Of a stretch of 24,796 nucleotides of DNA, positions 1 to 22,154 are shown piece after piece; position 1 is the first letter of the stretch; every line of letters starts with the position of its first letter. Made by a program: the position numbers and the translations under genes. The notes beneath the pieces are model-generated. The model had not been told where the DNA came from, ran no database searches, and was given only the letters and a program-made list of their open reading frames with translations. The stretch is from positions 1-24,796 of the forward strand of contig JAMQCK010000400.1 of assembly GCA_024196135.1 (NCBI GenBank). Reading direction: 5' to 3'. Origin of the DNA: Pleurotus ostreatus/Saccharomyces cerevisiae fusant. Its lineage: Eukaryota > Opisthokonta.

Positions 1-609
1 GCGACACTGACTATCTCATGACTATCTATGTTGATCTGTATATAGTCGTTATTCCACGACGATAATGCTACGCGCCTACTCCTTTCATCCCCCATAGCTT
101 GGCAATGGAAGTTAGAAAGTTCAACTTCCCACGGTTCGTATCATGCCAGCCACGTGCGCTGAATGCAACTGTGGCTTCTACCTGGCTTCTTCCGAGTCTC
201 TCATGTGCAGTCTCATAGAAAGCTCTCTGCTCGTCTCTTTCTCGTACGAAACCTTTCATGTCACTGTTGGGACCACCATCGCGTGAACAGGTACGCAGCG
301 GGACCCGCGCAGTTACAACAAGAGCCGCACCTCGACGTCCGGAGCTCTAGAAAACCTTGCTTCGCGCCTCATCTTCCGCGTCATCCAGAACAAGCGCGAT
401 ACAGGCCGGTCACGCGCGTCGCAACAGAGGTCGTGGGGCGCGCTTCTTGTGTGCGATAGCCCTCTGGTCTCCAGCCGAGAAGCACTGAGGGAGTGGGAAG
501 GATCATGGTATCATGCGCGAGAGGGGGGCGGCTGCGGCCACATAAAGATCCCCAGCTACTGCTGCGCGCACAGAGCATCTTTCCAACGACCCAGCCGACG
601 ACTGAGACG
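1..609. other. Upstream region of the chitinase gene; no supported gene
   Basis: I see no recognisable gene here. The short open frames on both strands have no known motif and no convincing splice partners. The last 100 bases or so must contain the promoter and 5' leader of the chitinase gene that starts at 610. An A/T-rich stretch near 540 (cataaag) could serve as a TATA-like element, but this is weak. Confidence 0.5.
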
Positions 610-3200: not shown

Positions 3201-3250
3201 GCGAGAACCTTGGAAACCAAATGGTCGCACCATCAAGGTTGCCACGCCGA

Positions 3251-5155
3251 TCACGACCAGAGCGTTAAGCGCTCTTTCATGACGCAACGAGTTTTAAGGT
3301 TCGGTTTGTGGCTCTGGACTGTATATGGACGGTACGCTGGAATGCATCGTACAATGGTGTCAGGAGGTTTCTGAGGGACGGTCAGCACCATAGTTGAGCT
3401 TCGAAGACTATTCCACATGCATTCTGCCAGACCACGGTCGGGAACAAGGAAGTCCATCACTACGAGCTCGTCCGGCCCCTGGACTTGATCATGCAAAAGA
3501 AGGCATAGTCTCCCGCTAGCGGGGCAGAAGTCATAGTTTCGCACTTGCTGCATCAGGTCCGACGTGAGAGGGGTCATGGCAGGCAGAGCCGCCGTCTCAT
3601 CCGTCGTCGCGCGATACGACATGCACGACGCCTCGTTTACTGAGTCGTTGAAGACCACGAATATGTGGCCCTCGCAGGATGCGACGACCGGACAGGCGGC
3701 GTTGAAGTCCTCGCCTTCGACGGTCCGCGGGATCCTGGCGCGGTAAAGGGGATACTGGCTAGGAAGGGCACCGACATGCGAGGGGTCCGTCCAGATGACG
3801 GGCGCCATGTCGAAGTGGTGGAGGTTGCGGAAGCCGAGGAGAGTGAACTCGCAGGAGGCGGGGGATCTGTAGAACCAGGGCTTCTGAACGAACCACACTT
3901 CGGTGTAGTCGTCCTCCGCGGGGGACATCGTGATGGGGAGGGGAGCGCACTGCTTGGGAAGGTCTGTGAAGCAGATCCGGCCACCGTGGAGGGTTTTGAT
4001 CTCGTAGAAATCGGTGAGCTTGGTCAGCCGGATGCGTGTGCGGTCGGGGAGGATTACGCTTGTTCCCGCGAGGAACACCTAGGAGGCTCAGGTCAGAGGA
4101 CAAGGGAAACCACTCTGAACGGACAGACTAACTTGCTCGCTGCGTTGCGCGTCCAATTTTGCAAACTTGTTGGATCGGTAGTCCCAGAGTACCAGCGTGC
4201 TATCTGCAACATCGACAGCACTCAAAACGACGTGCGTATCGGACATGGACCTAGGGCGAGCCAGAAATTCACAGCGCAGTCTGGACAGAGAGCGCACGTT
4301 CAAACGGCGATTGCGTGGCCTAGCTGTGAAGTCCACTTCGAAGACGCCTACGGCGTGTGTGCTGTGTTCACTCAATGACGTGTCCCAATGCAGAATCTTG
4401 GATCTTACTCACTGGTACAGCACGAAGATGATTCTCCCGGGCGCCTTCGCTTCGTATATCATGATATTGCATCCCGATGAGGAGGGATCCTCCGGTTCCT
4501 TCAGCAGCTCATCGAGGGTCTTGACGTACAGCGGAAGGGGCCGCACACCGCAATACGCGTTCTGGCCGAGATCCCAGATGTGGAAGTGTCTTTTGGAGGT
4601 CGCGAGCAGGAAGCGGCCGCCAGGGACCAGGGAAAAGTGATTGAAGTGGTCCTCCCAGTAGCTGGAGAATGGGCGCTCGCCGGGAATTCGGAGGGTCAGG
4701 GCTTGTCGGGCCAGAGGCGAAAGTCTGCGCTCTGAGTTGCCGGTGAAGTCCGCGCGGGGGCCGCTATGGGAGCGTAGGAGATTGAGGCAGCGGAGAGGTG
4801 CGGTGGCTGTGTGTTCAAGCATTTCTAGAGGCATGCTCTCGAGGTCGTATGTGCCGAGAAACACGCTATTCCGTTTACACATTTCACGTACTGCCGCCGT
4901 CCATATCGGCCGCGTTTTGGTTGAGGACTCCAGGTTCTTGCAAGTCTATCCGGCCCATGTTGAGCAGTAGGTTCCTTCCAGTGATGTCGTGAAGATTTGT
5001 ACCTTTCGTAGAGCGATAATATCCTGGGGTAGCAGATAACTGACGATGACCAAGAAAATATCGAACGGGAGATTGTTCAGCGCCGGTTTTGCAACCTGCA
5101 GCCCAAAGTATCCCGAGATAGAGCGAGAAGCAAGCCAGCGATATACTGGGTCCAT
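3251..5155 (-). CDS. F-box protein, copy A
   Basis: Likely substrate-recognition subunit of an SCF-type ubiquitin ligase. Exons on the minus strand are 5155-5003, 4945-4413, 4370-4133 and 4078-3251, giving 583 residues in frame. The F-box is near residues 28-60 (NLPFDIFLVIVSYLLPQDI), followed by LRKTCK and an IWTAAVREMC segment, the usual layout in basidiomycete F-box families. The rest contains WD-like patches (SLVPGGRFLLATSKRHFHIW, STLVLWDYRS) that may fold as a beta-propeller, and a conserved YDFCPASGRLC block near the C-terminus. It is a paralogue of copy B, with introns at equivalent places and a third exon of the same length (238 nt). The start at 5155 was chosen because it opens just ahead of the F-box. 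The C-terminal ~48 residues after VPDRGL do not match copy B, so the 3' end may contain another intron. Substrate unknown. Confidence 0.82.
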
Positions 5156-5654
5156 TGCGGCTGTGGCTGCAGCTCGGAGCTCCCGTCGCAGTGGATGTCA
5201 AAGTCAAGTTACCCGATCGGGCGATCGGCCGGCTTGTATGACATTGTTTGACCACATCCCCCGCGGATTCCGACGGCGCTGCGTTTCCGTTATGAGTGGG
5301 ATATGCGCTTGGATTGTATGTGCCACAATAGCTCTACATCATCTAACGGTCACAAAACTGGAGGAAAGCATCAGTGAAGGCCGTCACCAAGAACAACGTC
5401 AAACTCACCTTCACAATGCATGGTTAGGGACTAGACAATCCCATACACGCAGGGTTGGGCTGTGTTTCCATCAGGCTGATTGTCACAACATTACCGAATT
5501 GTCCTGGGCCGGGAGTTCAAATCCTCGACCAGAGAGCTGTCGCGACAGCGTACGACTACGAAAATTCACGCTACTCTCTACTTATTGCAGACAGTGAGCA
5601 TATACGTATGTCGTCCTTCCTCCTCTCCTATCCGTATTGAACGTTATAACCGCA
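5156..5654. other. Intergenic region between F-box genes A and B
   Basis: No gene supported. This should hold the promoter of F-box gene A (minus strand) and the 3' flank of gene B, whose displaced last exon ends at 5655. A gttcaaatcc string at 5515-5524 resembles a tRNA B box, but no cloverleaf can be drawn around it. Confidence 0.5.
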
Positions 5655-5673
5655 TCAAACTGGTACCTGAGCC
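5655..5673 (-). other. Displaced terminal exon of F-box gene B
   Basis: Gene B reaches a good splice donor (gtatgt, first base 20418) just before the right target duplication. Joining the flanks of the transposon continues that intron through 5708-5674, which contains a ctgac branch-like site and ends in a ctccag acceptor. The exon then reads five codons after the split Arg codon and stops (TGA at 5657-5655). The junction is in frame and the rebuilt intron is 49 nt, the normal size here. With this exon copy B would be 529 residues. This is inference from the joined flanks. Confidence 0.6.
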
Positions 5674-5708
5674 CTGGAGTTAAGTCAGCCTCCGACGGCA
5701 CTATATGC

Positions 5709-5716
5709 GAATAAGG
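5709..5716. repeat. Left 8-bp target-site duplication of the KDZ element
   Basis: GAATAAGG here is repeated exactly in the same orientation at 20405-20412. Bases immediately outside the match differ on both sides, so the duplication is exactly 8 bp. Each copy sits 4-5 bp from a CAGGCA motif that starts the aligned inverted termini. Confidence 0.7.
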
Positions 5717-5800
5717 CTCTACAGGCAGCCCAAACTGGTGCCTATATGATGGGATAGACCCCCATTGTACCATGACCATAAGGTCCGGCATTCCACTCTG
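5717..5800 (+). repeat. Left terminal inverted repeat (diverged)
   Basis: Matches the reverse complement of 20333-20404 imperfectly. Shared landmarks in order are CAGGCA (5722-5727), GATGGGAT (5748-5755), a GACCCC block, ACCA and an AGGT near 5790. Small insertions and deletions separate the blocks. Confidence 0.6.
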
Positions 5801-6065
5801 ATCATTCCATGTGGAACGATCCAACGTTCCGCACGCTATGGACTGTACCAACCGTCCTCGCACATGCTCTGGATTGTACCAGCCCTCTCAGAGCATACCA
5901 ACAATCATAGTTAGACTGGTATTTTCCATGCATTGGTATATTCTAAGTCTTGGTACATTATAATCAACGGTTCGTTTCTGTCTTCTGGTATGAACCACAA
6001 GAGTACCCTTCGCAGTAACGTACCAAAATGAAGCAATACATTCCACAACTGGAATATTCCATACA
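5722..6065. repeat. Left subterminal palindrome cluster
   Basis: AT-rich block with many copies of half-sites TGGTA/TACCA and GGAAT/ATTCC in both orientations. The best example is the perfect 12-bp palindrome TGGAATATTCCA at 6050-6061, found again at 19321-19332 in the right arm. Such repeats are candidate transposase-binding sites. It lies just beyond the 3' end of the leftward gene. Confidence 0.65.
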
Positions 6066-6253
6066 TCTTGCAGATAGATTCTCCTGCCACACCCAGACCT
6101 GGTGGAACGGTTGCTCGTCACCATTATTGTTGCACTCTCATAGCTTGCTCACATTCACGCCAGTTGGAAATCAAGAATACAATCCAATATATATGCTAAA
6201 TTACAAAAGATACAGAATCACGGTTAAGGGAGAGAATCAGGACTGACATGTAG

Positions 6254-9200
6254 CTAATCACCCTCAGCCTCTCGGTCCTTCCGCTTGTTTGGACGAGATT
6301 GTCCAACACGCAGCGACGTATCCTCTTGCGCAGGGTATGCTTCGAGGCGGCGACGCTTGTGACGATGGTCACCTTCACCTTCGTGGTGGCGTCGCAAGGT
6401 CGGAGTGGCCTGAGGTGGCGCAGGTTGGGTTGGATATCGGGCGTGGGCTTCGCCGTTCCCATAGGCTGCAGGATGCTGATACATCGGATGAAGGCCATAT
6501 GGTGGAGGCATAGGCATAGGGTAAGGAGGCATGAACGGCTGCGAATAGGGATCCGGATAATAGCCGCCATAACCGTATGTGCCATATGGGGGTAAAGGAT
6601 GTGTGGCTGGATGATCTGCGCCGGGATAAGGACTGGCCCAAGGATTGCCGTGTGCACGAGGGTCATGGGTTGGCAGATTCGGGTGCCCAAGACGAGATGA
6701 GGGTGGCGCCCGAGCAGCCTGCATGGGATGATGGCGAGAAGAAGCAGGTGGCGGCGATGAAGTTGGTGGGGGGTGGTGGTGAGAGGGAGCTGGTGACGGC
6801 GATCGGGTCGGCAGGGGGTGGCGCGAGGGAGCGGGTGGCGGGGATGGGGTTGGCATGTTTGTAGGAGGACGAGGATGAGGGGGAGCAGGGTACCCATCCG
6901 CACGCATATGGCCACTGGCAACATGAAGCTCGGAACGTGGAAGCGACTCAGCACGAGACTGAGCATCAACCTCGTCAGCTGGACTTGGCATCCGCGGTGA
7001 GTGGACAGAGATGTGATCCACGGTGGGTAGCTCCTGCCGGCGAGAGACCAGAGGTGATGCGCTGCCGTCTCGAGGTAGTGGTGTCCCTGTAGGGTGAAGA
7101 GGGCGAGAAAGAGAAGGGCGAGAGGAAAATGGTGGCGGCGAAGGAGTTCGCGCAGCATCTTCTCGATCGAAGCCACTATCTGCAACATCATCAGATCGAA
7201 CGAACAAATGAAGTGCAGACCCACATACCATCATGCCTCTGCGCCGCAACCAGCTCGTCAAAGGCCGCGGTAGACTGTATGGGCTCACAGTGCGGCTCTT
7301 GATAGTCAAGATCGATGTCGACCTGGGGCACCTTCTTCTTTCCTTTCCTCGGCTTCTTCCCCTTCTTCGTATTTGCGTGCTTGCTATCATACGCAGGATC
7401 GTCACGGGGTCGCTGCCGGGAGCCGTACTCGAAGTTCTTCGAGTGCCGGTGTTCCTCCTCGTCCTCGATGAAGAGCGGCGAGGCATTGACGCGCAGGATG
7501 ATCCTGTCGTCAACGTCATATGCAAGCCCCTTGTCGGCCAGGTCACGGAAGTCCTTGGCGCGAATGTGAGGATCCCAGCGTACGACCCGCACGGCATGGC
7601 GCAGCAACTCCTCGTCGCCATCATCTCCCTTGTCATAGGCGACACGAGCGTTCGCAGCCCGTTCCCACTCTTTGACAGAGGGATTGAGCGCCGCGCGTGT
7701 TGCATCAGGGTGACCAGGGCAATCATGGTCCCACCCTCGGAACCAGCCTCGAAGCTCGAGCCCAAACTTGTAGAAGAGGGTCATTGCGTTCGTCCTCCAC
7801 GTCCACATCGCAGAAGGTGGAAGCCCATAATCGATAAACATTATACGGGCTGGAGGGGTCATAAGAATACATGCAAGTAGGCAGGCAAGCCTTGACGTAC
7901 CGATGTCCTTAGCAACGCTGTTGAAGACGATGCGGCGGTGATAGTCACGAAGACTCTCGCTGGGGTTCCGCGGTCCTGTGTTGTACTTCTTCTGGAGAAT
8001 GATCTCGTTTGCCTCCCAGGCCTGGTCGACTTGCGGGCGAGGTTGCGCAATGATACGATCATCAGAGGCGCTCACGGTGGCGCGGCGGCGACGTTCCATG
8101 CGCAACGTACTGAGATGAGAGGTGAGATAGGAGTCACGACTTGGTATACAAATAGAACGTACTTGACCATACCAGCGATGTCCTTCTGGCTCTGCTCCAA
8201 GTTCAACGTGAACGAGGGGTGCTGCCACATCTCCTCATACGAGGGTGACCCTCCGAAGTGACCAACGTCGCCCGAGTCATCGACCATGAAGCCGAAGATC
8301 TCCAGACCGGTCTCCGAGTACACGCGCATGGCCCAGATGATGCCGTCCTCGCAGTTCTTCCGCATAAGCTGGCGGGCGCGCACAGGATCGGTCACCACCT
8401 GCTGAGCCTTCTGCAGACCTTGCTCGCGGATGAACTCGACAACCTCGGGGAACGCTCGTTGATAGTCGTCCAAGGTTGGATCATCCCCGAGAGGATCACG
8501 ACGAACGTGGTAGGCTTCGGTTGCAGCCACAAGTAGCTGATCGCGGTCATCTGAGAGATTGTCAGTATCAATACGCCACGATCAAACAGGTCAACGTACA
8601 CTTATGGACGTCAGGATAGCCTTCCTTTGCTCCGTGCACGCTAAACCAAGTCTGGTAGAAATTCCAGAAGTTCTCGCGACGTAGGGACGGCCGAGTAGCA
8701 CCCGCAATCTGATAGACGCGACTCTCCGTGAGATCATGCATGGCTGCATAGTCATTCAGCTTGTCGAAGTACTCCAGCGAAATGGCGCGAATTTCGTGGA
8801 CTGTCGACTGGCCAACAGCACCACTCTTATGTGGTCGCTTCGCAGGTTGCTCGCCAGACGGAGATGCAGGCCGCTCGCCAGGAAAAGGCGCAGGGTTCTC
8901 GACAGAGGGACGCGCAGGGTGCTCATCAGAGGGGTGCACAGGGTGTTCGCCAGCAAGAGGCGTAGCGGCACGACGTATAGACCCAGCTGGATTGGCAGCA
9001 GCAGGCTGCTTGCCACGCGCTTTGGCGGAAAGCCCGCGACGTCGCTTGGATGCCCCTTTACCCGACGGTTTGGCATCGTCATCAGAGGCATTGCCGTTCG
9101 CGTCGAGGTCGCGCTGCATCTCTTCGTCATCACTGTCATCGCCAGCGCGTACAACTGCCGCATCACGATCCTCGCTCGCGACGTACAGATCACTGGAATC

Positions 9201-10265
9201 ATCCTGGTTGTCGTCCTCGAGATCGCCATCATCAGAAGCCGCAGGCAGACGAGTCTTCAGCTCGACACCCTGTGCACAACGCGGGACTTTGCGCTGCCGA
9301 GATGCACGAGAGGCTGCAACAGGAGATACAGGAGGGGGGATCGGTGCTGGCAGCTCCCCGATGCGCTGAAGGGTAGACTCCTTCAGACGAAGCAGCTGCT
9401 GAACACAATCCTCAATAGTATCATCGGGATCGTAGCCATCCGCTGCTTGTAGTGCTTCCCGCCACTCTGCATAGTCGTAGCGGCCACCCAGGATCTCTTG
9501 CAGCGTAGCTTCTGCCGCCACTATGCCCTTACCCAACCGGGCAGCTTCTTCGAGAGCATCCCAAGCACGACGATTGACAACATCGGGTGAGGAGTTGGTG
9601 ATGATGGGAGATGGGTTATTGTCCAGCGGTGGATGGTTGTCGCGCGGAGATGGGCAGTTGCTGACAGCATGCGAGACGTCCTCCTCTTCGTGGGATGGAG
9701 AGACCCCGTCTCCGAGACGGTCCTGCGGGCCCCGGTCGTTGGGTACATCGAGGTTAGGGCGGCGCATGAAGTACGCATCGTCATTTCTAGGCCGTGGATC
9801 ATCGCGATTGCGAGGACGAGCACGCGGATAGCTTCGCTTTGAGCGCAGGGAGGCAGGATGTGGATCGGGGGAAATGCCATGAGGAAGCGGTTGGGTGTCG
9901 CGGGATGGCGGCCGGGATGCCCTATGCTCGTGGTCATTGTCTGCCGGTACGACCGACGGAACTTCGAGCTGTCCCTCGCCACCGCACCCATGTCTGGGGA
10001 CATGTTCGAGTAGAGCTTCTGATATGCCATCAGGCCGGTCTTGTTCGATAGCAGGCTCCGGCACCGGTGCTTTACCGCGCTTCGTGCGACGGGGAGCGGG
10101 CACTGTGCCGGGAGCAGGCACTTGATGGTCATTCGGAACCTCGAGTGGCGTGTCGGAGGTCTCGATGGGAGGTAAGCCAGCCTTAGGCTTGCGTGCGCCT
10201 TTCTTAGGCCGTGGCGTAGGATCCTTAACTGGCACAGTCCGCGTTCGGAGTTGGCGAGTTGCCAT
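6254..10265 (-). CDS. KDZ-element passenger protein 1, unknown function (1269 aa)
   Basis: I do not recognise this family. Minus-strand exons are 10265-8600, 8550-8163, 8109-7901, 7849-7229 and 7179-6254. Introns are 49-53 nt and the frame is continuous for 1270 codons including stop. Residues 1 to about 480 are mostly low-complexity, basic and proline-rich, then strongly acidic (DDGDLEDDNQDDSSD). A folded-looking core spans about 500-880, with NFWNFYQTWFSVHGAKEGYP, CEDGIIWAMRVYSETGLEIF and MFIDYGLPPSAMWTWRT. A basic patch (KKGKKPRKGKKK) and C-terminal KRRR and KRKDR suggest nuclear localisation. Residues about 962-1269 are a Pro/His/Tyr-rich disordered tail. It is transcribed away from the next gene, across a 1.6-kb divergent region inside the transposon. 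An accessory role in transposition is inference. The start ATG at 10265 is the first in the open frame. Confidence 0.8.
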
Positions 10266-11330
10266 CTGTCGCTCGAAAGTAAGAGATATGTTCGGGCCCT
10301 CGGAGACGTATATAACACACCTGATTATACGACAGGGAATGGATGACTTTCACAGACGATGCAGTTGCTGAGCTGGACGAGCATGAGACCGTATAACCTC
10401 GACCAGGGGAGTCAACTTACAGAGTGGCGATGGGCAGGTAGTGTTTGATGAGACGGTAGAGGGCAAGATGAAGTCGAGGAACAAACACAGACAACAGGCC
10501 AACACGCGGAAACAAACAAAGTATGTTGCAGACGACGTCTTATTCTGGCATAACTAATTATGGAAGAGGATGATGCGATCGAGGGCGAGAGTGACAGCAA
10601 AGTGAGTGTTGGAGTTTTGTGACAGACTGCACGCCAGCACATTACACAATGTTGCTCTAAAGGGTGCATTTAGCATTTGAGTACAAACACCTAGAACAAA
10701 AGCTTACCACAGATCTGGTGCTCCATGACCTATTAATTCATCATCGAGCTGCTGACTGCGAGGATCCCCAAGACGCGGTCGACGCAGTCTACGTTTGAGG
10801 GTTCCGCGATAGGTAAAGGTCGTGCAGAGCGGGTCGGCAACACCGAGTGGCGCACGGACACGGGGCTGATGACCGCGCGGCAGCTGCGGGCGAGCGCGCA
10901 GAGCAGGAGGCTTCGATGCGCGAGGCAGCTGCGCGTGCTAACAATGTTGAGGGACGCACGCAGAAAGCCGGCACACGACGAAGGCGGCAGACGCGCGTGC
11001 ATAGAGACGGCAAGGTATTAGCGCATGAGCGCGAGCGTGGAGGGAGCCGGAAAGGAGATCGATGAGGCGGGCGGTGGGGGTTGAGCTGGCAGGAGGGAAC
11101 AGCAGGTCGCCTCATGAGGGATGCCAACGACGCGCGCAACAGGGATCGTCAACAACGACCGTGCGGCCTGTGCAGGTGTGAGCTTACAGTTGATATGATT
11201 ATGCAGCGACTACATACCTCATTCGTCTAACATGGGCCTGCCAGCCGTTCGTATTCCCGCATCGCGCAGGTGTTATTGAAGTGGTGTATGAGGGGTCGCT
11301 CGATCGCGATGAAAGAACCGGCGCAACATC

Positions 11331-11442
11331 GCAGACGCCTCGAAGGCGCGTGCGACGGCAGAATTCACGGTCGCGCAGACGCCACGAAGGCGCGTGCGCG
11401 GTGTGAGTAAGGAGCTACGCAGACACCACGAAGGTGCGTGCA
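11331..11442 (+). repeat. Three copies of a GCAGACRCC-CGAAGG repeat, 44-bp period
   Basis: Copies begin at 11331, 11375 and 11419, exactly 44 bp apart. Each reads like GCAGACACCACGAAGGTGCG with one or two changes. The same motif appears in reverse orientation at 12032-12141, so the two arrays face each other across about 600 bp. Confidence 0.7.
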
Positions 11443-11689
11443 CGCAGAGGGGCTTCGAAGGTTGTCAGCTCGAGTTCGGTGGATGTCAACGTACCAAGGG
11501 CCACACGATGAGGGCAATAAAAGTCGACAAACTGAGCGGCGCAAATGTAAAAAAAGACCGATAGAATGTCGTTCGGCGCGATCGTGGGGCGACGGAGAGA
11601 AGGAAGGAGGAGGCGGGACTAGGTGAGGACGGAGGGGGACGGCGAGGACGACGACGCTGCACTCGGACGCGTCCACCGCCGATCACAAT

Positions 11690-11740
11690 TTCAAACTCCG
11701 ACACTCCGCAGCGGCGCTTTTCGGAGTATCGGAGTTTGAA
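11690..11740. repeat. 19-bp inverted repeat (dyad) upstream of passenger gene 2
   Basis: The left arm at 11690-11708 (TTCAAACTCCGACACTCCG) and the right arm at 11722-11740 are reverse complements with one mismatch, separated by 13 nt. Each arm contains two CTCCG units. It lies about 150 bp upstream of the ATG at 11893 and close to the midpoint of the two facing 44-bp-spaced arrays. It could be a cruciform or a regulator-binding site. Confidence 0.75.
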
Positions 11741-11892
11741 TCGCCCCCGCACGCCCGCTCGTCCTCCCCGCCTTTGCAGTCGTCCTTCCTGCCTGTCCGC
11801 CTCCCTCGCTCATCGCATCCACACTCGACGTCGTCCCAACCCCCTTGTCCATCCTTGCGAACGACCACGTGCGCTCAAGACCGTGCGCCCCG

Positions 11893-14800
11893 ATGTCATC
11901 AGGAGAAGAACGACAACGCGCCAAGCGCGCAGCTGCAAACGCCCGCGTTCAGCGCCGACAGTAAGTGCTTTGCGTCGTTCATCTGCGCTGACGCTCCCTC
12001 AAGCCCTCGTCTTTGACGAGCCTGCGGAGGGCCGCACTTACGTGGTGTCGCCCTCCACTCCCCCGGCGTTACCTTCCGCACCTTCGTGGTGTCGTCGCGT
12101 ATCGTCGGGCTATGTCGCGCTAGTCGCACCTTCGTGGTGTCACTAGTGCTTGACTCCGTGCAGTACTGCAACACGGCGCGCACGCTCTCGCCCCGTGGTC
12201 GCGTGCCTCTCGGTCGTCCATCGCGCCTCTGCGCGCTCCCGATCGGCACGTTGGCCCGCGTCCCGCACACCCACACGGCCCACAGCGCCCTGTTGCTCGC
12301 GTCCGTCGCCATGCTGCCTGGTCTGACGTGCTGTCCGAACCTGCTTCGCAGGATGGATGGTCCCGATACCTTGCAACGTGTGCGCAGACATCGGCACAGC
12401 GCTTGTGCGCTCCATTGTGCGTCGGCATTGTGCACACGCCCGTTCGTGGTATCGCACATTCGCGGGCTCATCGGCCGAAGGGTTGGGGGCGCGTCAGCGC
12501 CCAGGAACTCTACGGATTCTCATCGACCTCAGCGAAGAACGCCAGAAGCGGCAGGACCCGGACTACGTCGACCCGGAGACGGAGGAGGCGGAGCAGGATG
12601 CGGTGGCGGAGTTCTACCAGCCGGTCCAACTGCCTACTGAGCAGGAGGAGGCTGAGGCGCTGTGCGCGAAGTTCGGGTGGCAGACCAAGCAGTTTCTGCT
12701 GGGAGGTGAGTTGACCCTCAGTTACAGCCTGAACGACCGACTGATTGAGTTGCAGAATCTAATGATTTTGACGTCGCGCAAGCGATCGGCCTCACCCACG
12801 ATGGGCAACACCTTGTCACCTGTCCAAACGCGTCCGACATACCGAAACCTCTGCCCAACACCCGCGTTGTCCGGATGCGCCGCGATGGGCGCTTCGGCCC
12901 CGACGACCCTATGTACCGCCCAGTCTTCTATTGCGAATCATACCCTCATCTTGTCTGCGTACCTACACCTTCAGCCTACAACAACAAACTTGCGATATGC
13001 TATGAACACCCTGAACGCGAGACTTGGATGCATTCTTTCAGCGAGACGGCCCCAGACATCGGCTTCCTGAGTCTGGAGTATGAACAGCGGTTCGAGCCGC
13101 TGCGATTCGAGGTGCACCTGTACGCGCACAAGCTGGCGAAAGACCTCGACATCGTCAACCGCCAGACTGAAGACAAAGACGTCTATCTATTCCTCGGTCT
13201 CGAGCAACACATCCATCACGAGCACTGTCGTGCAAAGTCGGCACCCTCATCTTGGAGTGATCTCCGCTTCCTCATCGTCACCCTTCAGCGTCATATCATC
13301 GAGGCATTTGCGCTGAAGATGTACATCACCACTGTACGCCCTCGCCTGGCTCCGACGACCGTTCTGAAGGGGCGTCTTCCTGAGCCGGAGGATGTACTCG
13401 GGGCCTTTGTCCGACCCAAGCAAGACCTGCTTGCGCGTCGTCTGGCGTATGCTGGTGTACCCGTCTTTCAACTCCACGACTTCGCCGAAATACGTTGGAT
13501 CCTCAGCAATACCGCTCGCTGGGGCGTCCCTAAGGCTGCGAAGTTTGTCCTTCTTCGTGACCGCCTCGAGCACGTCACTCGTGAGGATGACATGGTGGAC
13601 ATGGAGGTAGACGGCATCCGCAAGCCGTGGCCGGTGCATCCTGTCATCTACAAGGGCCCTCAGGATCATGAGCTCATGCTCCAGCGTATGCACGACTACA
13701 AGCAGACCTTCTTTCGTACCACAGACGTGTGGGATGCCCCCGACGACCCAGCCTTGGCCGACCCACTTCTCGTGCGTCCAGAGACGTCGTCGTTCCACAG
13801 GAGAGGAGTAGCATCTCTTGCGCGCTCGGTCGTCGAAGTTGCACAAAATGTTCCACACTCTTACGGCGAGGGTGTCGTGTCGGATGCTGCTGCGGTACGA
13901 CAGCAGGTCGCCGCTACCTGGGGTGCTGCTACTGGCTCGTCTTCCGCTGCGTCAACATCTACCTCGACCTCGCATAGTATGCCCCTCGGCAACACCTCCG
14001 ACTCCTCCAAACGCGAGGCGTACCGCACCGGCCTTCCCTCTCATCGTCGTGGTGCAAAAGACAAGGCACCGAAGGCACGATATGCTGAACCGCGTAAGTT
14101 TACCGTATAATTGAAGTTAAATATGTACTAATATCCTTGCAGCAATACCTTCGTTCGGTGATGACGCACCTTTTGCTCCCTCCTTTTGGCGCGACTCTGT
14201 GGAGAAATACAAGAGCACGCGCGGCTTCAACGGAAAGGCCGTCTACCCATCTCCGCCGCCCCGTCTGCTCCTCGCATCTGGCACTTCGGACAAGCGAGCG
14301 AAGGTCTTCCAGTTCTGGGCACTAAGCCAGCCGTACCTCCTCGCCCTCCTCGTTCAGTCCATGTCAGCGCCTAGACTACATGTGCTCATGAACCAGGAAT
14401 GGCGTGTTGTCCTTCAGCTTCCCTTCAAACGTCTACCGACTACGTCATCCATGTCGTCCTCTTCATCTTCATCACCTGCTACCTTCGCCGAAGCAGAAAT
14501 TGAGAATGTGCTCAATATCTTCGGTGATCTGGCGACTGTCCAACGGCTCATCAGCAGGCTGGGGGGACCATACGAGTACGACAGCGACAAGATTGTGGGC
14601 ATCCCATCTGCGGAAACTGCGCGCAAGATGCTCTGGTTTGCACACGAAGTCCTATTCCGTGCCGAATTCGTCAATCTCAATCGCGAGATGCACGCCAGGA
14701 CCCGAGGGGATAACTTGTTCCAAATGGATGTCGTCGACGAGGAGCGCGTACTGAGCCGCTGCTTCGCATTGGAGACAAGAGACGATGGCTGCTTCATTAT

Positions 14801-15068
14801 TCCCCGCTTCCCAAAGACTGGTGACGTCGGTCTTGTGGCGCATGACTGGACCCACCGGCATCCATTCATGACTGCGCTCGCGTGCGCCATGGAGGGTTGG
14901 ACTGTGCCAGCCGCTGTACCGGAGGTGATACACGCACGACGCGAGGAGATCGGCATGTGGAAGGAGCGGGAGTACTTGCAGTGGGAGAAGGACCTTGTCG
15001 AACATTATGTCGCGTGCTTTGTTGAGGTTTTTACATATCTGCCCGAGGTCCCGCGCCGGCTCTTTTGA
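11893..15068 (+). CDS. KDZ-element passenger protein 2, unknown function (834 aa)
   Basis: Not a family I recognise. Exons are 11893-11960, 12533-12705, 12756-14093 and 14143-15068, giving 835 codons including stop, all junctions in frame. The short first exon (MSSGEERQRAKRAAANARVQ) joins a second that continues the same charged helix (EERQKRQDPDYVDPETEEAE), which supports the unusually long 572-nt first intron; introns 2 and 3 are 50 and 49 nt, the last with a tactaat branch site. The body has a mixed alpha/beta look (YRPVFYCESYPHLVCVP, KDVYLFLGLEQHIHHEHC), a Ser-rich linker around residues 470-510 and a C-terminal region with ETARKMLWFAHEVLFRAEF and DVGLVAHDWTHRHPFMTAL. No signal peptide or membrane span is visible. 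It lies 222 bp upstream of the transposase on the same strand, inside the transposon. A role in mobilisation is inference. The first intron is the least certain part. Confidence 0.78.
12032..12141 (-). repeat. Three reverse-oriented copies of the 44-bp-spaced repeat
   Basis: GCACCTTCGTGGTGTC-type copies end at 12049, 12093 and 12141, spaced 44 and 48 bp. They are the reverse complement of the array at 11331-11442. They fall inside the long first intron of passenger gene 2, which may explain that intron's size. A degenerate further copy may lie near 12442. Confidence 0.7.
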
Positions 15069-15290
15069 AGTTTACCATACTGATAGCACACTTGCCACTG
15101 TCCTATGATATCTTGGTTCAGCATCCGTCTTTCACTTGATTGATATGTTCAGGTCCATTGTGCGTCGTCCTTTGTTGTTTTGGTCTATTGTTTGACGGAC
15201 AAAGCTGCGTCTCGTGCTAATCACATGACAGGCGTTGTTCACCTTGACTTCGGACTCCACCAGCTGCTCGCCACTCGCGCGCCTCTCACG
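15069..15290. other. Gap between passenger gene 2 and the transposase
   Basis: Contains the 3' end of passenger gene 2 and presumably the transposase promoter and 5' leader. An in-frame ATG at 15225 could extend the transposase by 22 residues; I preferred 15291 because the charged FKLNKNDKRK sequence follows directly. Confidence 0.4.
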
Positions 15291-18200
15291 ATGTTCAAGC
15301 TCAACAAGAACGACAAGAGGAAGCTCAAGGCGGGCCTTCCACTCAACACAGGTGCTCTGCCACCGCCGTCACCCTCGACTGGTGTGCAGCATGGTTATAC
15401 CCCATCGACTGTGCGACACTTCGACAAGAACACCTTACAGAACCTCGGACCGATATCCTTCGGCCCCCTGGGCCCTCGCGCTCAGCGTAAACTCCTTCCT
15501 CCACGCGAAGGACAATTCGGTTTCGGTCTTCCGAATCTCCCTCGAACTGCGCGAGAGTGGCAAGCTCCTGTCGAAGATGGCGACAATCCCGAGAACCCTT
15601 TCCTGGAAGAATCCCATCCCGACGACACTCTACAAGCCTCTCCAACTGCAGACCCTTCCCCTATCCCCTTTAATCGACTCTTCGATATAACGAGCTCGCC
15701 TGCGTCTGGTGGAGGCTCGAACTACAGGGCGAAAAAGGTCAAGCAGCATGCGCGCTGGGTCAATGAGATCATACCTGACTTGCTATATCCCTACATGGAG
15801 CTCCGCCGCGCGACCGCCAACCTGCGAGATCCTGCTCCAACCTATACGACCTTCAACTGTGGCTGTGGTCCTGCTTGTAGTCACTGCTCTTGCCGACGCG
15901 GATGTCCAGTTCGAAGTGTATCGGTGATCGTACTGCGCTTCCTCGGTGAGTTTTGCTGGCATTGATGTGTACGGTTAGATGCTTATTGCTATTGTAGCGT
16001 TGGAAGAGATTACCGTCTACTATACAGAGTGTAATGGTGTCGCCGAGCAGCTCATCCGATGCGGGTTATTCCCCTGTGCTCCGCTACGCCCGTCTTTTGC
16101 CGTCGACATCAACATTCTCGACTTTGCACGGCTTTTCTATCATCAAACCGCGCCGAACGACACGGCGTGGTGCCAGGCAACTGAAGCATTTTTGAGTGAT
16201 CGTGGATATAAGCTGCAGTTTACTGTAAGTCTTCTTCGTCCGAGGTGCTCGTCGACGTCGTGCTTATATGCTTGACAGGACAATCTTCGTCGCCGTTTCG
16301 CCAACACTATGCTATGGTACTCTTACCTTCGTCAACAAGTCCAGCTGGAGGTTGACAAGTCGGTCAATCTTGCCCATCACGCTGTCAATCCGTCATGGGA
16401 GGTTTCTCCCACTCCGGCATGTGGCTTCACTGCACGCAAGGCGTCATCGCGCACCTCCGATTGCGCTGGCGAGGAGGAATCAACGCCTCGTGCTCAACGT
16501 AGCCAGGGTACACCATCAACTCCTTCCCAGACCCGATTGCGGCCGGCCAGTCCTTCTGTCGCCTCCGCAGACCTGGATACTACACCACGTGCGAGCATCC
16601 AGAATGCGCGGCGCAAGCGCGCGCGCGAAGCAGAACCTCCTGTTGAGCTTCCGACTCCCGAGAATCCATTTCCCGAACCTCGAGAACGTGCAGTCTGTAG
16701 CGCATATCTCCAGCGTCGCTGTCCTGCGTGTTTCGGGGGGAAAGACAAGGTCACCTCGTCACCTGATTTGCCTATGTATGTCACGTCTTTCTATTACTTC
16801 TACAGTACGTAGCTGATCTCATGTTTAGGCCTGATGTCCTTGTATGTGTTGATGCGTGCTATACGCAGAAGCATAACCGGATGGCCTATCGTGATGAGAG
16901 TCTGCCCAACTCGGACACCATTGTAGTCGATGAGTCTATCATCGACGCAATGGAGTCGCACATCAATGGCGTCCGTCCGCGTGCACCCCGTCCATCTAAG
17001 CGTTCACGAGGCGCGGGCGATGGGGCTGAGAGCGATGACCGCATTGAGGCAGGGCTCAAAGTGGCGAACTCAACACTTGAGTTGTGCGAGAAGAGTTTCA
17101 AGGCTGCAAATGGTGCCGTGATCAAGGGGACCACCGACAAGCACGATGTCGTCTCGATTATGGCGCTTGTCTGCCGCCATGATGTTGCGCTATTTGTTAC
17201 GAATATGCGCACTGCTGGCGAGCAGCAATTCTACAGTCTCGCACTGATAGAGTGTCTTATGCAACACTTGCCTCGCTCGTGGACAGTCGGCATCCTCTAT
17301 GATGTTGCGTGCACTCTGCACAGTAGCTGCGTCAAGTGGGGCTTTCTTAAGCGCTACCTGGACCGTCTCTCATGGGGTGTATCTGTCTTCCATGCGTACG
17401 GCCACCAGTATGCTTGCCAGTCGATCTATCATCCTCGCAAGTGTATTGGCTTTGGGCTTACGGATGGAGAGGGATGTGAGAGGTTCTGGCATAGCCTGAG
17501 TCGGCTGATTGCATATCTCAGAGTGTGCGGGGTGCGTCTCTTCACTTTCCTGCTGAATCAACTACTAACTTGACGATAGTATCACCGCCGCAACTTCACA
17601 ATCGATAGCCAGATTGCGACGCTCACGGAGGAGCACCTCCTCCGTCTGGGTGATTGGCAACAGCGCAAGTTTAAGAACTGCGCACTCCTTCGTGCGGAGG
17701 CAGAGAAAGACCTGCTCGCATCGGGCTGGTCGGTTCCTGACCTGCAGAAGCAATGGGATGATCAGGTTCGCACATCAACCGCGCCACTCGCTCGTAAGTG
17801 TTGTCTGTTTTCTCTATGACTCGCTCTGACTCCTACTTCAGGACAGAGCAAGACGCAAGGGAAGAAGGCTGTCGAGGAAGCACTGCGACTTCATGACAAG
17901 CTTGACATCCTTATGGACCGCTTGACTCGTCTCGAGGATTTATCCATTGATGATGATGTCACAAGCGCAGTCCGCTCCGAAGCTCGAGTACATCGCGAGC
18001 AGGTCAAGTCGGAACTTGATCAAACTCGTCGTGCACTTCAGGGCAAGCTCAATGAGCTTGGCCAGGAGGATACCGAGCATCTGCATGCCTTGCGCAGTGA
18101 CAAGTTCACAAATGCGCGTATGAATGGGCTGGCCCTCCTACAGCGCATTCATGACAAGGTCGTTCACCGTAAGCATGAGATGCACCGGATCGCCCGAGCT

Positions 18201-19551
18201 GTAGGAAAGCAGAAGAGTGGAAGTGGTATGTATTTCTCAACTATTCTATTACTTCTGCCTGACTTCTTGGACAGAGCAGCGCCTTGCTGACCATACTCTT
18301 GCTGCTATTGAGGGTCGAGATGCGTCGATCAAATCTCTTATCGCTCGCTACAACCAAAAGGTTGGTGAGCAAGAGGATTTGATCCAGAAGCGTGCAGCTC
18401 CACCAAAGGCTGCTGCCTTGCCTCGCCTGCCCAGAACAGGTGTATTTGACCTGGACGTTGACTCTGAGATTTGGTTCCCTCTCCGGGCCCGGATCGAAGA
18501 TGACTCTGGATCTCCACCTGCATGGCTCGCAAAGGAGGATGTCCGTAAAGGCATTCAAGGCATGCTTAACCGGCAACGGTGCATGGAAGAGGAGACACGT
18601 CTCAAGCACGAGACTCGTAATCTACGCACCTGGTTTGCGGAGGAGTGGAGGGCTGTGCACAAGCTGGCAGAGACCCTGAATAGCTTCACTGGTGATAAAG
18701 GTATGTATAAGCTATTGATTCTCTATATCTGTACTCATAATTTCCGCCAGCTCAGCCTGAAGTTCTGCACGAAGTGGAGCAGCGTAAGTTACGACTTCTG
18801 CGGCTCTATGCACGGTGGGATGGCAAACTAGCCGACGTGCCGGAGGAAAGCCTGCCGCCTTGGGGACCAAGTGAAGAGACCCTTCATCAGGCAAGGCAAG
18901 AGTGGTCATCTATCCGTGTGGCTCAAACACCATCATCATCAATGTATCCGGATGATGATGAGTTGATACCTTTGGTCGATGATCAGGTCGATGCATATGA
19001 GCCATATGCAGAGGTTTATGGTATGTTGTATGATAATTCTGTAGAATTGCTATCTTAGCTATCAGTATCATGGTATATGGTTTGTTGAGACTGGGATTGA
19101 GTGTGGACTTTGACTTTGGATCATTACCACACAATATACTACTTAGGAATATTCCAGAGGTTGATATACCACATGGAACATACTGTTGCACTGTTTGGTA
19201 TATACCAATCAGATGGTCCAAACCCAGGAAGCACTTGGTATAGTCCAGGAAATACATGGACCATTCCGTAGATCAGGATGGTATATACCAAACCAGCTAT
19301 GGAAATTCCTTTGGAATCCTTGGAATATTCCAGCGAGAATGGAATGAGCCATATATGTACCAAATATAATCTGGTCTATTCCTTATCTGGTAAGTGGTAT
19401 ATTCCAGCATACCAAACATGCTTGACAAAATAATGTACTCCATCTCCCAGTGTCTGATGAGGTGACAGAGACAGTGGTAGCAGTGACAGTTGATGCACCA
19501 AAGAAGAGTGCAGAAGCGGAAGAAGATGCCCGTGACATTGAAATGATATAA
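15291..19551 (+). CDS. KDZ-family transposase with CxC cysteine cluster
   Basis: DNA transposase of the Kyakuja-Dileera-Zisupton superfamily, expected to cut and join the element ends. Exons are 15291-15945, 15998-16224, 16279-16775, 16829-17531, 17580-17793, 17842-18225, 18275-18700, 18751-19020 and 19451-19551, totalling 1159 codons including stop, all in frame. An N-terminal cysteine cluster (CGCGPACSHCSCRRGC, Cys190-205) is followed by GLFPCAPLRP, then RRCPACFGG just before the catalytic core, as in CxC-KDZ proteins. Core residues are Asp468 in VCVDACYTQK, Asp618 in ILYDVACTLH and Glu674 in GLTDGEGCERFWHSL, with HAYGHQYACQ before the last. The C-terminal half is charged and probably coiled coil (residues about 760-900). 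The end is ambiguous. If the 430-nt last intron (19021-19450) is retained, the protein stops at 19058 (1137 aa). That intron is full of the element's subterminal palindromes. Confidence 0.88.
19066..19425. repeat. Right subterminal palindrome cluster 1
   Basis: Dense copies of the same half-sites as the left arm: TGGAATATTCCA (19321-19332, identical to 6050-6061), TTGGTATATACCAA (19195-19208), TGGTATATACCA (19279-19290) and TGGTATATTCCA (19395-19406). The cluster overlaps the predicted last intron of the transposase. Confidence 0.75.
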
Positions 19552-20245
19552 GTAGGATGGACATGAGAATAGGCAGATTAACTGATCTGCGGCGTGAAGC
19601 TTACTCGCTCGAAGAGCTATACAGTCCAGACAACGACAGCATGAACATCGACAAGGACTCAACAGACGATGCCCCCAGCTCGGGGATCCTGGCCAGAGAC
19701 CCTGGGCTGATACTCTCGAGTTATGCTTGTACATACAGAATTATCTTTTGCTTGTCTTCTACGTACAGTGTAGATTATATTAGATACATTGTAGGCCACA
19801 AGGTGGCTTGCTGCATTGGGAATAATCATCAATCTCTACTCTTACCACTGTCGAGAAGGAGCCTTGGGAAGCGGGCACCGGGAATACCACCCTATCACCT
19901 CGTTGTTGAGTATAGGTCCGACGCAGGTGCTCTATCCACTTGATGTCACGTGTGTATCATAAGACACTTACTACACGCTACCCAAGTGCTCCCGCTCCCA
20001 ACTGTCACCAAAGGGTGACCACTAGCACTTGCCCTGGACCCTAATTGACTGGCAGGATCCTTACTCGCAGACACAGAGCTTCTGCCAAAGGCAGTGCAGC
20101 GGAAGAGCTATGGCTTCAACTTCTGTAGTGACACGGTCACATGTCTGCCTGTGTGGTACTACAGACTATGTACACACACGTAGGGGGCAATGGGGAGGCA
20201 AGATAACACCTGATTTGGCCAAGAGCAATGAAGCGCAGGTGTACG
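19552..20245. other. Non-coding right arm of the element
   Basis: No gene supported. A plus-strand open frame at 19557-19943 begins with an acidic stretch (LEELYSPDNDSMNIDKDST) that could be a missed 3' exon of the transposase, but no acceptor joins it in frame in a way I trust. A tRNA-like relic (about 19866-19949, minus) and a compound hairpin (19983-20031) are noted separately. Confidence 0.4.
19983..20031. repeat. Compound inverted repeat (hairpin)
   Basis: The outer arms CAAGTGCT (19983-19990) and AGCACTTG (20024-20031) are perfect reverse complements. Nested within them, GTCACC (20004-20009) and GGTGAC (20014-20019) form a second perfect stem with a 4-nt loop. This could be a terminator-like or protein-binding structure near the right end of the element. 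Confidence 0.6.
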
Positions 20246-20404
20246 TAGGTATATTCCAATATAAGTGGATCAAGCTAGCTATATACCGAATCATATCACA
20301 ATGGAATGGGCTGTACCACCATCCTGGTATACAGGTACCTGATGGACTTGGTATCGCATGGGGTCATCCCATCTTTTGGGGTCAATATTCCATATGCCTG
20401 GATT
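20246..20404. repeat. Right subterminal cluster 2 and right terminal inverted repeat
   Basis: Contains GGTATATTCCA (20248-20258) and further GGTAT and AATATTCCA units. Its outer 72 bp (20333-20404) align in inverted orientation with 5717-5800: ATCCCATC at 20366-20373 and TGCCTG at 20395-20400 are the counterparts of GATGGGAT and CAGGCA at the left end. Confidence 0.65.
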
Positions 20405-22154
20405 GAATAAGGACATACCTTCCTGCGTTTCCCAGCCCACGATCGGGTACGAGGAAGTCTAAAACGACGATCTCGGTGCATCGGCCATCTTGAAAAGGCA
20501 CAAGACAGACCCGACCACTGGCAGGGCAGAAGTCCCAGTCGGCTATGGTGGCATTGTCTTCGCGAGTAAGATATAGCATATCAGGCGTGCTCGGCTCTAC
20601 GGGAGAGACGACATATGCAGCGCACATGAGGCTTTGACTATTATCATCAGTGAATGCAAGCACATTCCGCCCTTCCGACGGCGCGACAGACATAGACTCG
20701 TCAATCGAGTCCCAGCATGGCAGAGTCGGAAAGCGGGCGGACGTGTAAGGAATTTGATCCGGCATCGTAGGGGATTGCGGTGTCGTGATCTCCGCCACTG
20801 CGAGGTGAGAGCGGTGGCGCGGTGTAAGTCTATCGATAGATAGAGGGGCATCGCGTCTGTTGTACCATCCATCGCGGACGACCCAGACACCGACGTCTTC
20901 GTCGGCGGTGAGGACGGTGATGGGAATATAGTCTGCCGCGGACGGAAGATCAGCGCAGGACGACAGAGGTCCATCGACGCTGACGAGTGGAGGGATGCGA
21001 TAGACATGGAGCCGGCCATAGTAGGCAAGGGCAACACTGTTTCCCGATGGCAAGAATTTTGCCTAGGTGTCAGAATTACTGCCGGCTACTTCTCGAAGAT
21101 AAGCGAGGACGTACGACGCTTGGTGGGTCATCCAATGCTGGCAAGCTCCCAAGAGCATTTTTGCGATAGTTCCAGATTAGAGCCACCGCCGTGTCCATGT
21201 CATGCTCGTCCAGTAAGACAATATCCTCAGAGACATCCATTATGACAGTGTCAGACTTCCAGTTCAAGTGGATGATCCCGACGGTCTGAACATCGATGAG
21301 ATCGCTAGTCGTTGTCGAGAAGTGGAGCTCAAGTACAAGCGCGCCATGGGACCTGTTGAAGTACGGATGTTGATGAGTTTTCATGCAAAGATGGGATATG
21401 AAATGAACGCACCTTGGCCCGGACGACGTGAGGACAGCCACAAATTTACCAGCCTGCCTTGATTCACATACGGTGAAAAGGGCGAAGGAAGGCTCAGCGT
21501 CACCTCGCTGCGTACCGGCTAGTTCTCGGAGCCCTTGACAGAATACAGGGAGAGGCTTCATTCTCTCGTAGCCACTTCGTCCGAGATCCCATACGTGGAA
21601 ATGCCGCTCGGAGGTGGCTGCGAGAAAGCGGCCACCCGGAACCAGGCAGATCACGGTGAAGCCATCGTGCTCAGCGAGAGGGGAGGACGACGTGACGGTC
21701 TCAGGCAATCGCATGAGGAGGGTGCGCTTTGCCAAAGGCTTCATGGTAACGGCGCTCGGAGATGTACTAGCGTGCTTGTGGAGAAGGCGCAAGAAGCGGC
21801 CTGGTGCAGTAGCCGCGTGTTCCAGTTCCTCCAAAGACATGTTTTCCAGGTCGAAATTGGCTCTGAAAACTAGATTTCTGGAGCACATCGTGCGTACGGC
21901 CGTCATCCAGATCGAGCGAGATTGAGTCAGCCATAGAAAAGACCTGCACGTCTGCCATGCGATCAGTAGTTGAAGGAGAACTCAACCCGTCCATTTATGC
22001 ATACCTTACGTAGCGATATTATGTCTTCTGGCAGTAGGTATTCCGTGATAACCAAGAGCAGGTCCAAGGTAAGGAACTCGATGAAGGACGGCGGGGGCAT
22101 GGGCTGGATACTTCGAGTCGACATATCCAAGGGAGAGATCCGCGCCAGCGCCAT
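20382..22154 (-). CDS. F-box protein, copy B, last intron interrupted by the KDZ element
   Basis: Paralogue of copy A and likely an SCF substrate receptor. Minus-strand exons are 22154-22005, 21951-21413, 21352-21115 and 21062 to a donor after 20419. Residues about 24-50 hold the F-box (FLTLDLLLVITEYLLPEDI), then LRKTCRSF and SIWMTAVRTMC. WD-like patches (CLVPGGRFLAATSERHFHVW, VALIWNYRKN) and WDFCPASGRVCL match copy A. After VPDRGLGNAG the reading frame crosses a gtatgt donor and enters the transposon, where it would stop at 20382 (535 aa). The original last exon appears to be at 5673-5655, which would make 529 aa. Whether splicing across a 14.7-kb insertion still works is unknown, so the protein may be intact, altered by a few residues, or lost. 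Confidence 0.8.
20405..20412. repeat. Right 8-bp target-site duplication of the KDZ element
   Basis: GAATAAGG, the exact same-orientation copy of 5709-5716. On the minus strand it lies six bases into the donor side of gene B's last intron. Confidence 0.7.

What the first reader, a model, noticed from the sequence alone, without database searches (positions are those of the whole stretch)
5709..20412. A 14.7-kb KDZ transposon with readable ends and target duplication
Identical 8-bp direct repeats (GAATAAGG) flank aligned inverted termini: CAGGCA, then 26 or 27 bp, then GATGGGAT, GACCCC and ACCA at both ends. The interval contains a KDZ transposase with all core motifs and two further intact genes. 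KDZ elements are rarely delimited to the base, so this is a candidate complete reference copy.
Basis: partly seen in the sequence, partly recalled or inferred. Interest (0 to 1): 0.85.

Follow-up and report, generated by a model that had tools for sequence, protein, structure and literature searches.

The report
Complete KDZ transposon with empty site
A 14.7-kb jumping gene of a little-studied fungal group sits here complete, with its ends fixed to about one base by an unoccupied copy of the same site, and its relatives share an unusual layout of repeated control sites.

Summary
GAATAAGG flanks 5717-20404. Repeat plus short termini alone is no better than shuffled DNA. Decisive evidence is independent. 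Contig C1259 of the same genome carries the site without the element: window flanks joined with one 8-mer align to it without a gap. Five other KDZ elements in this genome were delimited at both ends with 7-8-bp repeats; the window's left end matches one of their two terminal types, its right end neither well. Four of the five fit 7 bp, so the right end is 20404 or 20405.

The host is Schizophyllum, probably S. commune. The element carries an intact KDZ transposase, gene 2 (identical to a public S. commune protein) and gene 1. Gene 2 relatives lie on nine other KDZ contigs; gene 1 is probably a remote relative of their third gene.

Beyond the finding, 12-bp palindromes cluster near both ends. 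Relatives carry a different palindrome in 25-bp arrays, 95-96 bp from one end, and once between the divergent transposase and gene 2 (5 of 5). I propose an autoregulated multi-site transposition system.

The parts
5717..20405 (.). the KDZ element (14,688 bp if it ends at 20404 with an 8-bp repeat; 14,689 bp if it ends at 20405 with a 7-bp repeat)
   Evidence: flanking repeat, empty site C1259, terminal match on the left
5709..5716 (+). left target-site repeat GAATAAGG (AATAAGG 5710-5716 in the 7-bp model)
20405..20412 (+). right target-site repeat GAATAAGG (AATAAGG 20406-20412 in the 7-bp model)
5717..5730 (+). left terminus CTCTACAGGCAGCC, the 'CTC' type of end
   Evidence: 11 of 14 positions match the CTC-type consensus of five other elements
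20392..20405 (-). right terminus, read inward CAATCCAGGCATAT; begins CA as the other type of end does, but the sequence match is weak
   Evidence: 6 of 14 to the CA type, 7 of 14 to the CTC type, chance level; placed by repeat and empty site
5812..6061 (+). left cluster of 12-bp palindromes (TGGWATATWCCA): six sites with up to 2 mismatches at 5839-6061, one with 3 mismatches at 5812
6254..10265 (-). gene 1: exons 10265-8600, 8550-8163, 8109-7901, 7849-7229, 7179-6254; 1269 aa; 3' part of the model uncertain
   Evidence: 950 of 961 aligned residues identical to public P0121
11893..15068 (+). gene 2: exons 11893-11960, 12533-12705, 12756-14093, 14143-15068; 834 aa
   Evidence: 834 of 834 identical to public P0122; relatives on nine other KDZ contigs
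15291..19551 (+). KDZ transposase gene, 9 exons, 1158 aa, no stop inside
   Evidence: PF18758, 6.4e-49; 1036 of 1041 aligned residues identical to public P0001
16851..17480 (+). candidate catalytic residues D468 (codon 16851), D618 (17301), E674 (17469) or E677 (17478)
   Evidence: invariant in 30 of 30 aligned relatives; catalytic role inferred
19021..19450 (+). intron 8 of the transposase gene (430 bp) holding the main palindrome cluster, seven sites at 19145-19406
   Evidence: present once in the genome
20247..20258 (+). single palindrome AGGTATATTCCA near the right end

Best explanation
This is a complete, recently inserted DNA transposon of the KDZ superfamily in Schizophyllum. It most likely moves by cut and paste: the KDZ (RNase-H-type) transposase cuts at the two ends and joins them to a target with a 7-8-bp stagger, which leaves the direct repeat (shown: repeat, empty site, intact transposase frame; inferred: chemistry and activity). 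It belongs to a wider group of KDZ elements in this genome that carry the transposase, a conserved partner (gene 2) and a third gene (of which gene 1 is a probable remote relative), with two kinds of end: a CA type and a CTC type. A family-specific 12-bp palindrome is clustered roughly 1 kb inside the CA-type end and from about 0.1 kb inside the CTC-type end; in the group with divergent genes one more copy lies between transposase and gene 2. I infer that a protein of the element, gene 2 or the Cys-cluster part of the transposase, binds these palindromes as a dimer, pairs the two ends, and in the divergent group also represses its own promoter. In the window the CTC-type end is on the gene 1 side, so the ends appear swapped relative to the direction of the transposase.
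For: Empty site colinear with the window's flanks. Five other elements with both ends and repeats: TACTTCC, TTATTAC, CAGCTTA, GATTCGC, GTTCTAAA. All zero-mismatch genome hits of the end motifs are on KDZ contigs: 4 of 4 and 5 of 5. Left end 11 of 14. Palindromes: 14 against 1.36 expected, 0 of 100 shuffles, all 14 at 5839-6061, 19145-19406 and 20247. Relatives: first palindrome 95, 96, 96, 95 and 95 bp from the CTC end (C822 has a further hit at 82), CA-side array at 0.7-2.1 kb, one perfect site between the divergent genes in 5 of 5. Intact genes, nearly identical to public S. commune proteins.
Against: Single copy in this genome, so no sister copy confirms the ends. The right end matches neither terminal type above chance, and the swap of ends rests on the left end and on palindrome distances only. 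C761 fits 8 bp, not the 7-bp rule. No palindrome copy with up to 2 mismatches lies between the window's genes, so the promoter-site idea does not cover the window. At up to 2 mismatches its first palindrome is 122 bp from the end, not 95; the 95-bp site needs 3 mismatches. Protein-DNA binding is untested; the gene 2 model was useless (pLDDT 33) and the transposase model matched no solved structure.
Confidence: 0.88

Rival explanations
1. The ends are elsewhere: a larger element or nested insertions, and the 8-bp repeat with short inverted blocks is chance.
For: Repeat plus arms alone are no better than shuffles (observed 14, shuffles 13-18; 144 of 300).
Against: C1259 is colinear with both flanks and breaks exactly at the repeat; the left end matches the terminal motif of five other KDZ elements.
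Confidence: 0.02
2. Duplication of 7 bp (AATAAGG) with the right terminus at 20405, rather than 8 bp with the terminus at 20404.
For: Four of five other elements fit one 7-bp rule with a CA start; Kojima 2025 reports 7 bp and CA..TG termini for Laccaria Kyakuja (PMC12730594, passages).
Against: C761 fits 8 bp; three of the five also fit 8 bp if the left end starts at AGCC. The empty site has A where the window has G at the disputed base, so it does not decide.
Confidence: 0.6
3. The palindromes are promoter or silencing sites of the host, not transposase or partner binding sites.
For: Copies between divergent genes; the relatives' core GAANNTTC resembles a heat-shock element (recalled, not from a call).
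Against: Family-specific sequence, clustering near both ends, and constant 95-96-bp distance to one end in five elements.
Confidence: 0.25
4. Gene 1 is a captured host gene (cargo), not a core gene.
For: No relative elsewhere in the genome at the search's threshold; one public relative, S. commune only, among 6550 candidates; hmmsearch with the third-gene profile misses it.
Against: blastp 1.9e-5 and 3.0e-5 to two of four third genes (best of 200 shuffles 0.80); hhalign 94.5%, E 7.8e-8.
Confidence: 0.3

Closest known systems
Kyakuja elements (KDZ superfamily; Laccaria bicolor Kyakuja-1_LB and -2_LB, Kojima 2025, PMC12730594; abstract, passages and figure legends seen)
   Same: KDZ transposase; short duplication (7 bp there, 7 or 8 here); a terminus starting CA
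   Different: No TET/JBP domain found in the window's three proteins; short inverted termini here, none reported there; the other end type is CTC; two further genes; palindrome arrays
KDZ1-KDZ3 of Cryptococcus neoformans (PMC12810828, passages seen)
   Same: KDZ plus Cys-cluster transposase, 4-8-bp repeats, about 9-11 kb, shown to move
   Different: TIRs of 139-241 bp there against a weak match of a few tens of bp here
Zisupton (described in PMC12730594 passages; original paper not seen)
   Same: KDZ superfamily, 8-bp duplication
   Different: Subgroup of the window's transposase not tested; no named Zisupton reference was aligned
En/Spm TnpA/TnpD and hAT Hermes (recalled; for Hermes only a listing was seen, PMC10368747)
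   Same: Many short subterminal binding sites used to pair the ends; En/Spm has a separate binding partner and autoregulation
   Different: Unrelated transposases; binding here is only inferred

Membership tests
KDZ superfamily | KDZ transposase domain (PF18758) above the curated cut-off | tested here: met
   167 bits against 26.6
KDZ superfamily | D, D, E catalytic residues | tested here: met
   invariant in 30 of 30 aligned relatives and present in the window; the RNase H fold itself was not confirmed (no hit with E up to 0.001)
KDZ superfamily | CxC cysteine cluster before the catalytic domain | tested here: inconclusive
   CxC2 20.7 bits (cut-off 27) and CxC1 19 bits (cut-off 26.9), both below cut-off
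KDZ superfamily | target duplication of 7-8 bp | tested here: met
Kyakuja | 7-bp duplication, CA..TG termini, no TIRs | tested here: inconclusive
   7 bp and a CA start are possible; the other end read inward starts CTC, so the element does not have plain CA..TG termini
Kyakuja / Zisupton / Dileera | position in the transposase tree | not tested
   no named reference sequences were at hand; only a tree of this genome's own KDZ domains was made
TET-bearing KDZ elements | TET/JBP dioxygenase gene | tested here: not met
   no such Pfam domain in the window's three proteins nor in ten ORFs from three other elements

The most novel reading that the evidence does not exclude
These KDZ elements are multi-component machines: the transposase, a conserved partner (gene 2) and a third gene act together; a family-specific 12-bp palindrome works both as a multi-site end marker (in relatives a 25-bp-period array about 1-2 kb inside one end and a site fixed 95-96 bp from the other) and as the operator of the shared promoter, so that element dose controls both expression and assembly. 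In the window's family the main array has moved into an intron of the transposase gene and the ends are swapped, so that splicing and end recognition share the same DNA.
Probability: 0.4. Interest if true: 0.75.

Novelty: new variant of a known kind. Interest (0 to 1): 0.58.

Why it matters
KDZ elements are a large fungal transposon group of which few have been delimited and whose end recognition I found undescribed. Here one genome gives six with both ends known (the window and five others), an unoccupied site for one of them, and a consistent anatomy: two end types, a partner gene and family-specific palindrome arrays. That makes end recognition, the role of the partner gene and autoregulation directly testable in S. 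commune, for which gene deletion methods exist (PMC7641404, passages). The near identity of the element's proteins between strains (99.5-100% of aligned residues for transposase and gene 2 against three of the public relatives, 98.3% against a fourth partial transposase, 98.9% for gene 1), beside 82-96% DNA identity of the flanks to the empty site, suggests recent movement.

Tried and rejected
Repeat plus inverted-arm statistics alone and plus end profiles window-wide: not significant, so not used as proof. BLASTN of the window against other KDZ loci found only the conserved transposase exons. The pattern CAGGCA N{20,35} GATGGGAT gave 10 places, two of them the window's ends, none of the other eight on a KDZ contig. 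A CTC-type motif at the left end of relatives was sought and not found, which led to the second end type. The gene 2 structure prediction (3 sequences, pLDDT 32.8) was discarded. The transposase model (pLDDT 73.7) found no PDB match with E up to 0.001; sequence searches of the PDB found none. The KDZ-domain tree used the wrong strand for seven loci and is replaced. The first gene 2 model (808 aa) held a false micro-exon and a false intron; it was the query and was corrected. ARAGORN with the bacterial code found no tRNA; Rfam found one, in a relative. Considered and rejected: larger element, nested insertion, chance repeat (see rivals). The palindrome consensus of the window was picked by eye from the sequence before it was counted, so its significance is post hoc; the relatives' palindrome came from a scan.

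Full report
Observation. The window is a whole contig, C615, of a 40.05-Mb assembly of 1277 contigs. By themselves repeat and arms are not significant: of 2555 repeat pairs in the window this one ties for the best arm score (14), but 29 of 30 shuffled windows reach 14 or more.

The empty site. The left flank 109-5108 matches C1259:109-5140 at 93%. The left flank 5109-5708 matches C1259:5141-5498 and 5923-6149 at 82 and 87%, with about 0.4 kb extra in C1259. The right flank 20406-21304 matches C1259:6151-7055 at 96%. Letters of C1259:6080-6230 align to 5631-5716 joined to 20413-20490 over 151 columns without a gap, with 10 mismatches; the 8-mer there reads AAATGAGG. So C1259 is an unoccupied copy of this site, colinear over at least 5 kb on the left and 0.9 kb on the right. 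Whether it is the other allele or a duplicated segment is not settled.

Other elements. The KDZ family PF18758 has 27 matches on 21 contigs, the window included. I fetched eight of the other 20 contigs (seven whole, 30 kb of C349) and, for the other twelve, only the 3-4 kb around the match. Five right ends share TGGTWGCCTNAGGAG with 0-2 mismatches (C349, C535, C748, C932, C822). The flanking bases led to left ends AGCCTTGGC in C349, C535 and C748 with the same repeat on both sides. Genome-wide, the CA-type motif has 4 zero-mismatch hits, all on KDZ contigs, and 5 one-mismatch hits, one of them on a KDZ contig, against 4 for the reversed control. The CTC-type motif has 5 zero-mismatch hits, all on KDZ contigs, and 33 one-mismatch hits, two of them on KDZ contigs, against 29 for the control. 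Small stretches then gave repeats for C367 and C761. With the left end read as CAGCC, the repeat is 7 bp in C349, C535, C748 and C367, and 8 bp (GTTCTAAA) in C761. Sizes are about 18.4-19.5 kb.

Ends of the window. The left end matches the CTC type at 11 of 14 positions, reached by 10 of 49,566 positions of the window on both strands. The right end reaches only 6 of 14 for the CA type and 7 of 14 for the CTC type, which is chance level. It is therefore placed by repeat and empty site, not by sequence. Combining end profile and inner block, 0 of 1500 shuffles match. The right end is 20404 (8-bp repeat) or 20405 (7 bp, which would make it start CA when read inward).

Genes. The transposase gene (15291-19551, nine exons) encodes 1158 aa without a stop, PF18758 at 6.4e-49, CxC1 and CxC2 below their cut-offs. 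D468, D618, E674 and E677 correspond to columns invariant in 30 of 30 relatives. Gene 2 in its corrected form is identical over 834 of 834 residues to a public S. commune protein. Gene 1 has 950 of 961 aligned residues identical to a public S. commune protein. P0121 and P0122 both name a longest contig of 100,297 bp, P0001 and P0123 one of 123,813 bp; I infer that gene 1 with gene 2, and gene 2 with the transposase, are linked in other strains. The best three transposase relatives of the 120 listed (453 found) are S. commune.

Gene 2 in the genome. Relatives at 26-34% identity lie on 11 other contigs, nine of which carry a KDZ match (C349, C375, C212, C367, C932, C822, C535, C748, C761) and two of which do not (C326, C622). 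In eight of the nine, gene 2 and transposase are divergent; in C212, as in the window, they point the same way. Gene 1 has no genome relative at the threshold, but ORFs near the CTC end of the other elements form a third gene. Gene 1 matches it by blastp in two of four cases (1.9e-5, 3.0e-5; best of 200 shuffles 0.80) and by hhalign (94.5%, E 7.8e-8, 188 columns); hmmsearch gives no hit. I call it a probable remote relative.

Palindromes. TGGWATATWCCA with up to 2 mismatches has 14 sites in the window, 1.36 expected, 0 of 100 shuffles reaching 14; all lie at 5839-6061, 19145-19406 (intron 8 of the transposase) and 20247. In the other 20 KDZ loci or contigs scanned it has 0-3 sites each. Relatives use YAGAANNTTCTR: arrays of 25-bp period in C748, C535, C349 and C822, the beginning of one at the edge of contig C932, and a 28-bp period in C212; C681 and C985 have none. 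In five of five elements examined (C349, C535, C748, C932, C822) exactly one perfect copy lies between the divergent genes, with 0.00-0.01 expected each; the intervals were set by hand from ORF edges, for C822 only roughly. The first site (up to 1 mismatch) lies 95, 96, 96, 95 and 95 bp from the CTC-type end (C822 has a further one at 82); the CA-side arrays lie at 0.7-2.1 kb. In the window the distances are 122-333 bp from the left end and 147 and 999-1249 bp from the right end; a weaker site (3 mismatches) is at exactly 95 bp, but ten such weak sites lie in that 537-bp stretch, so this may be chance. These distances and the left end suggest that the ends are swapped relative to the transposase direction.

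Relationship. The window's KDZ domain is 47.9-53.4% identical to nine of the other KDZ domains (C822, C748, C535, C375, C349, C367, C932, C761, C184) and 45.9% to C681; the remaining ones compared are far more distant. In the tree of 15 domains it falls, on a long branch, into a group of ten with those nine (support 85/93).

Mechanism. Shown: precise insertion with a short duplication, an intact transposase frame, partner genes, palindrome clusters. Inferred: cut-and-paste, palindrome binding by an element protein, pairing of the ends through many sites, autoregulation in the divergent group. Recalled parallels are En/Spm TnpA/TnpD and Hermes.

Literature. Searches of the open library found no description of palindrome arrays, of a conserved gene 2 or of a fixed palindrome-to-end distance in KDZ elements; Iyer et al. 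2014, which founded the group, is not held, so this absence is limited. Kojima 2025 gives 7 bp and CA..TG without TIRs for Laccaria Kyakuja and 8 bp for Zisupton (passages). Cryptococcus KDZ1-3 have TIRs of 139-241 bp and 4-8-bp repeats (passages).

Noticed in passing
G000 C1259:5141-7055 against window 5109-5708 and 20405-21304: The contig with the empty site differs from the window's flanks by 4-18% and carries about 0.4 kb extra shortly before the site: allele of a second haplotype or duplicated segment, undecided.
   Followed up: partly
window 109-449: Identical to C1090:1-341 (minus) while also 93% identical to C1259; it looks like an assembly branch point.
   Followed up: no
L046:8685-8763 (C748:18685-18763): A tRNA match (Rfam, 36.6 bits) lies inside the KDZ element of C748, between its palindrome array and its CA-type end.
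   Followed up: partly
L040 (C212:4507-5235): Long array of CAGAATATTCTG-like palindromes with 28-bp period, between a gene 2 relative and a transposase reading frame with two stops.
   Followed up: partly
window 11330-11442 and 12032-12142: Repeats of a GACACCACGAAGGTGCG-type motif in opposite orientations on the two sides of the gene 2 start, and a 19-bp inverted repeat at 11690-11740 upstream of it; possibly regulatory.
   Followed up: no
window 460-1089 and 2150-3268: PX-domain and glycosyl hydrolase 18 reading frames in the left flank, host genes outside the element.
   Followed up: no
C932:14426-16791 and C822:3009-5432: The CTC-end 2.4 kb of two elements is 81% identical while most of the rest of their alignable DNA is 65-75%: the third-gene end may have been exchanged between families.
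   Followed up: no
C822:407 (minus): A second CTC-end-like motif (2 mismatches) about 2.6 kb beyond the element's end; maybe another insertion.
   Followed up: no
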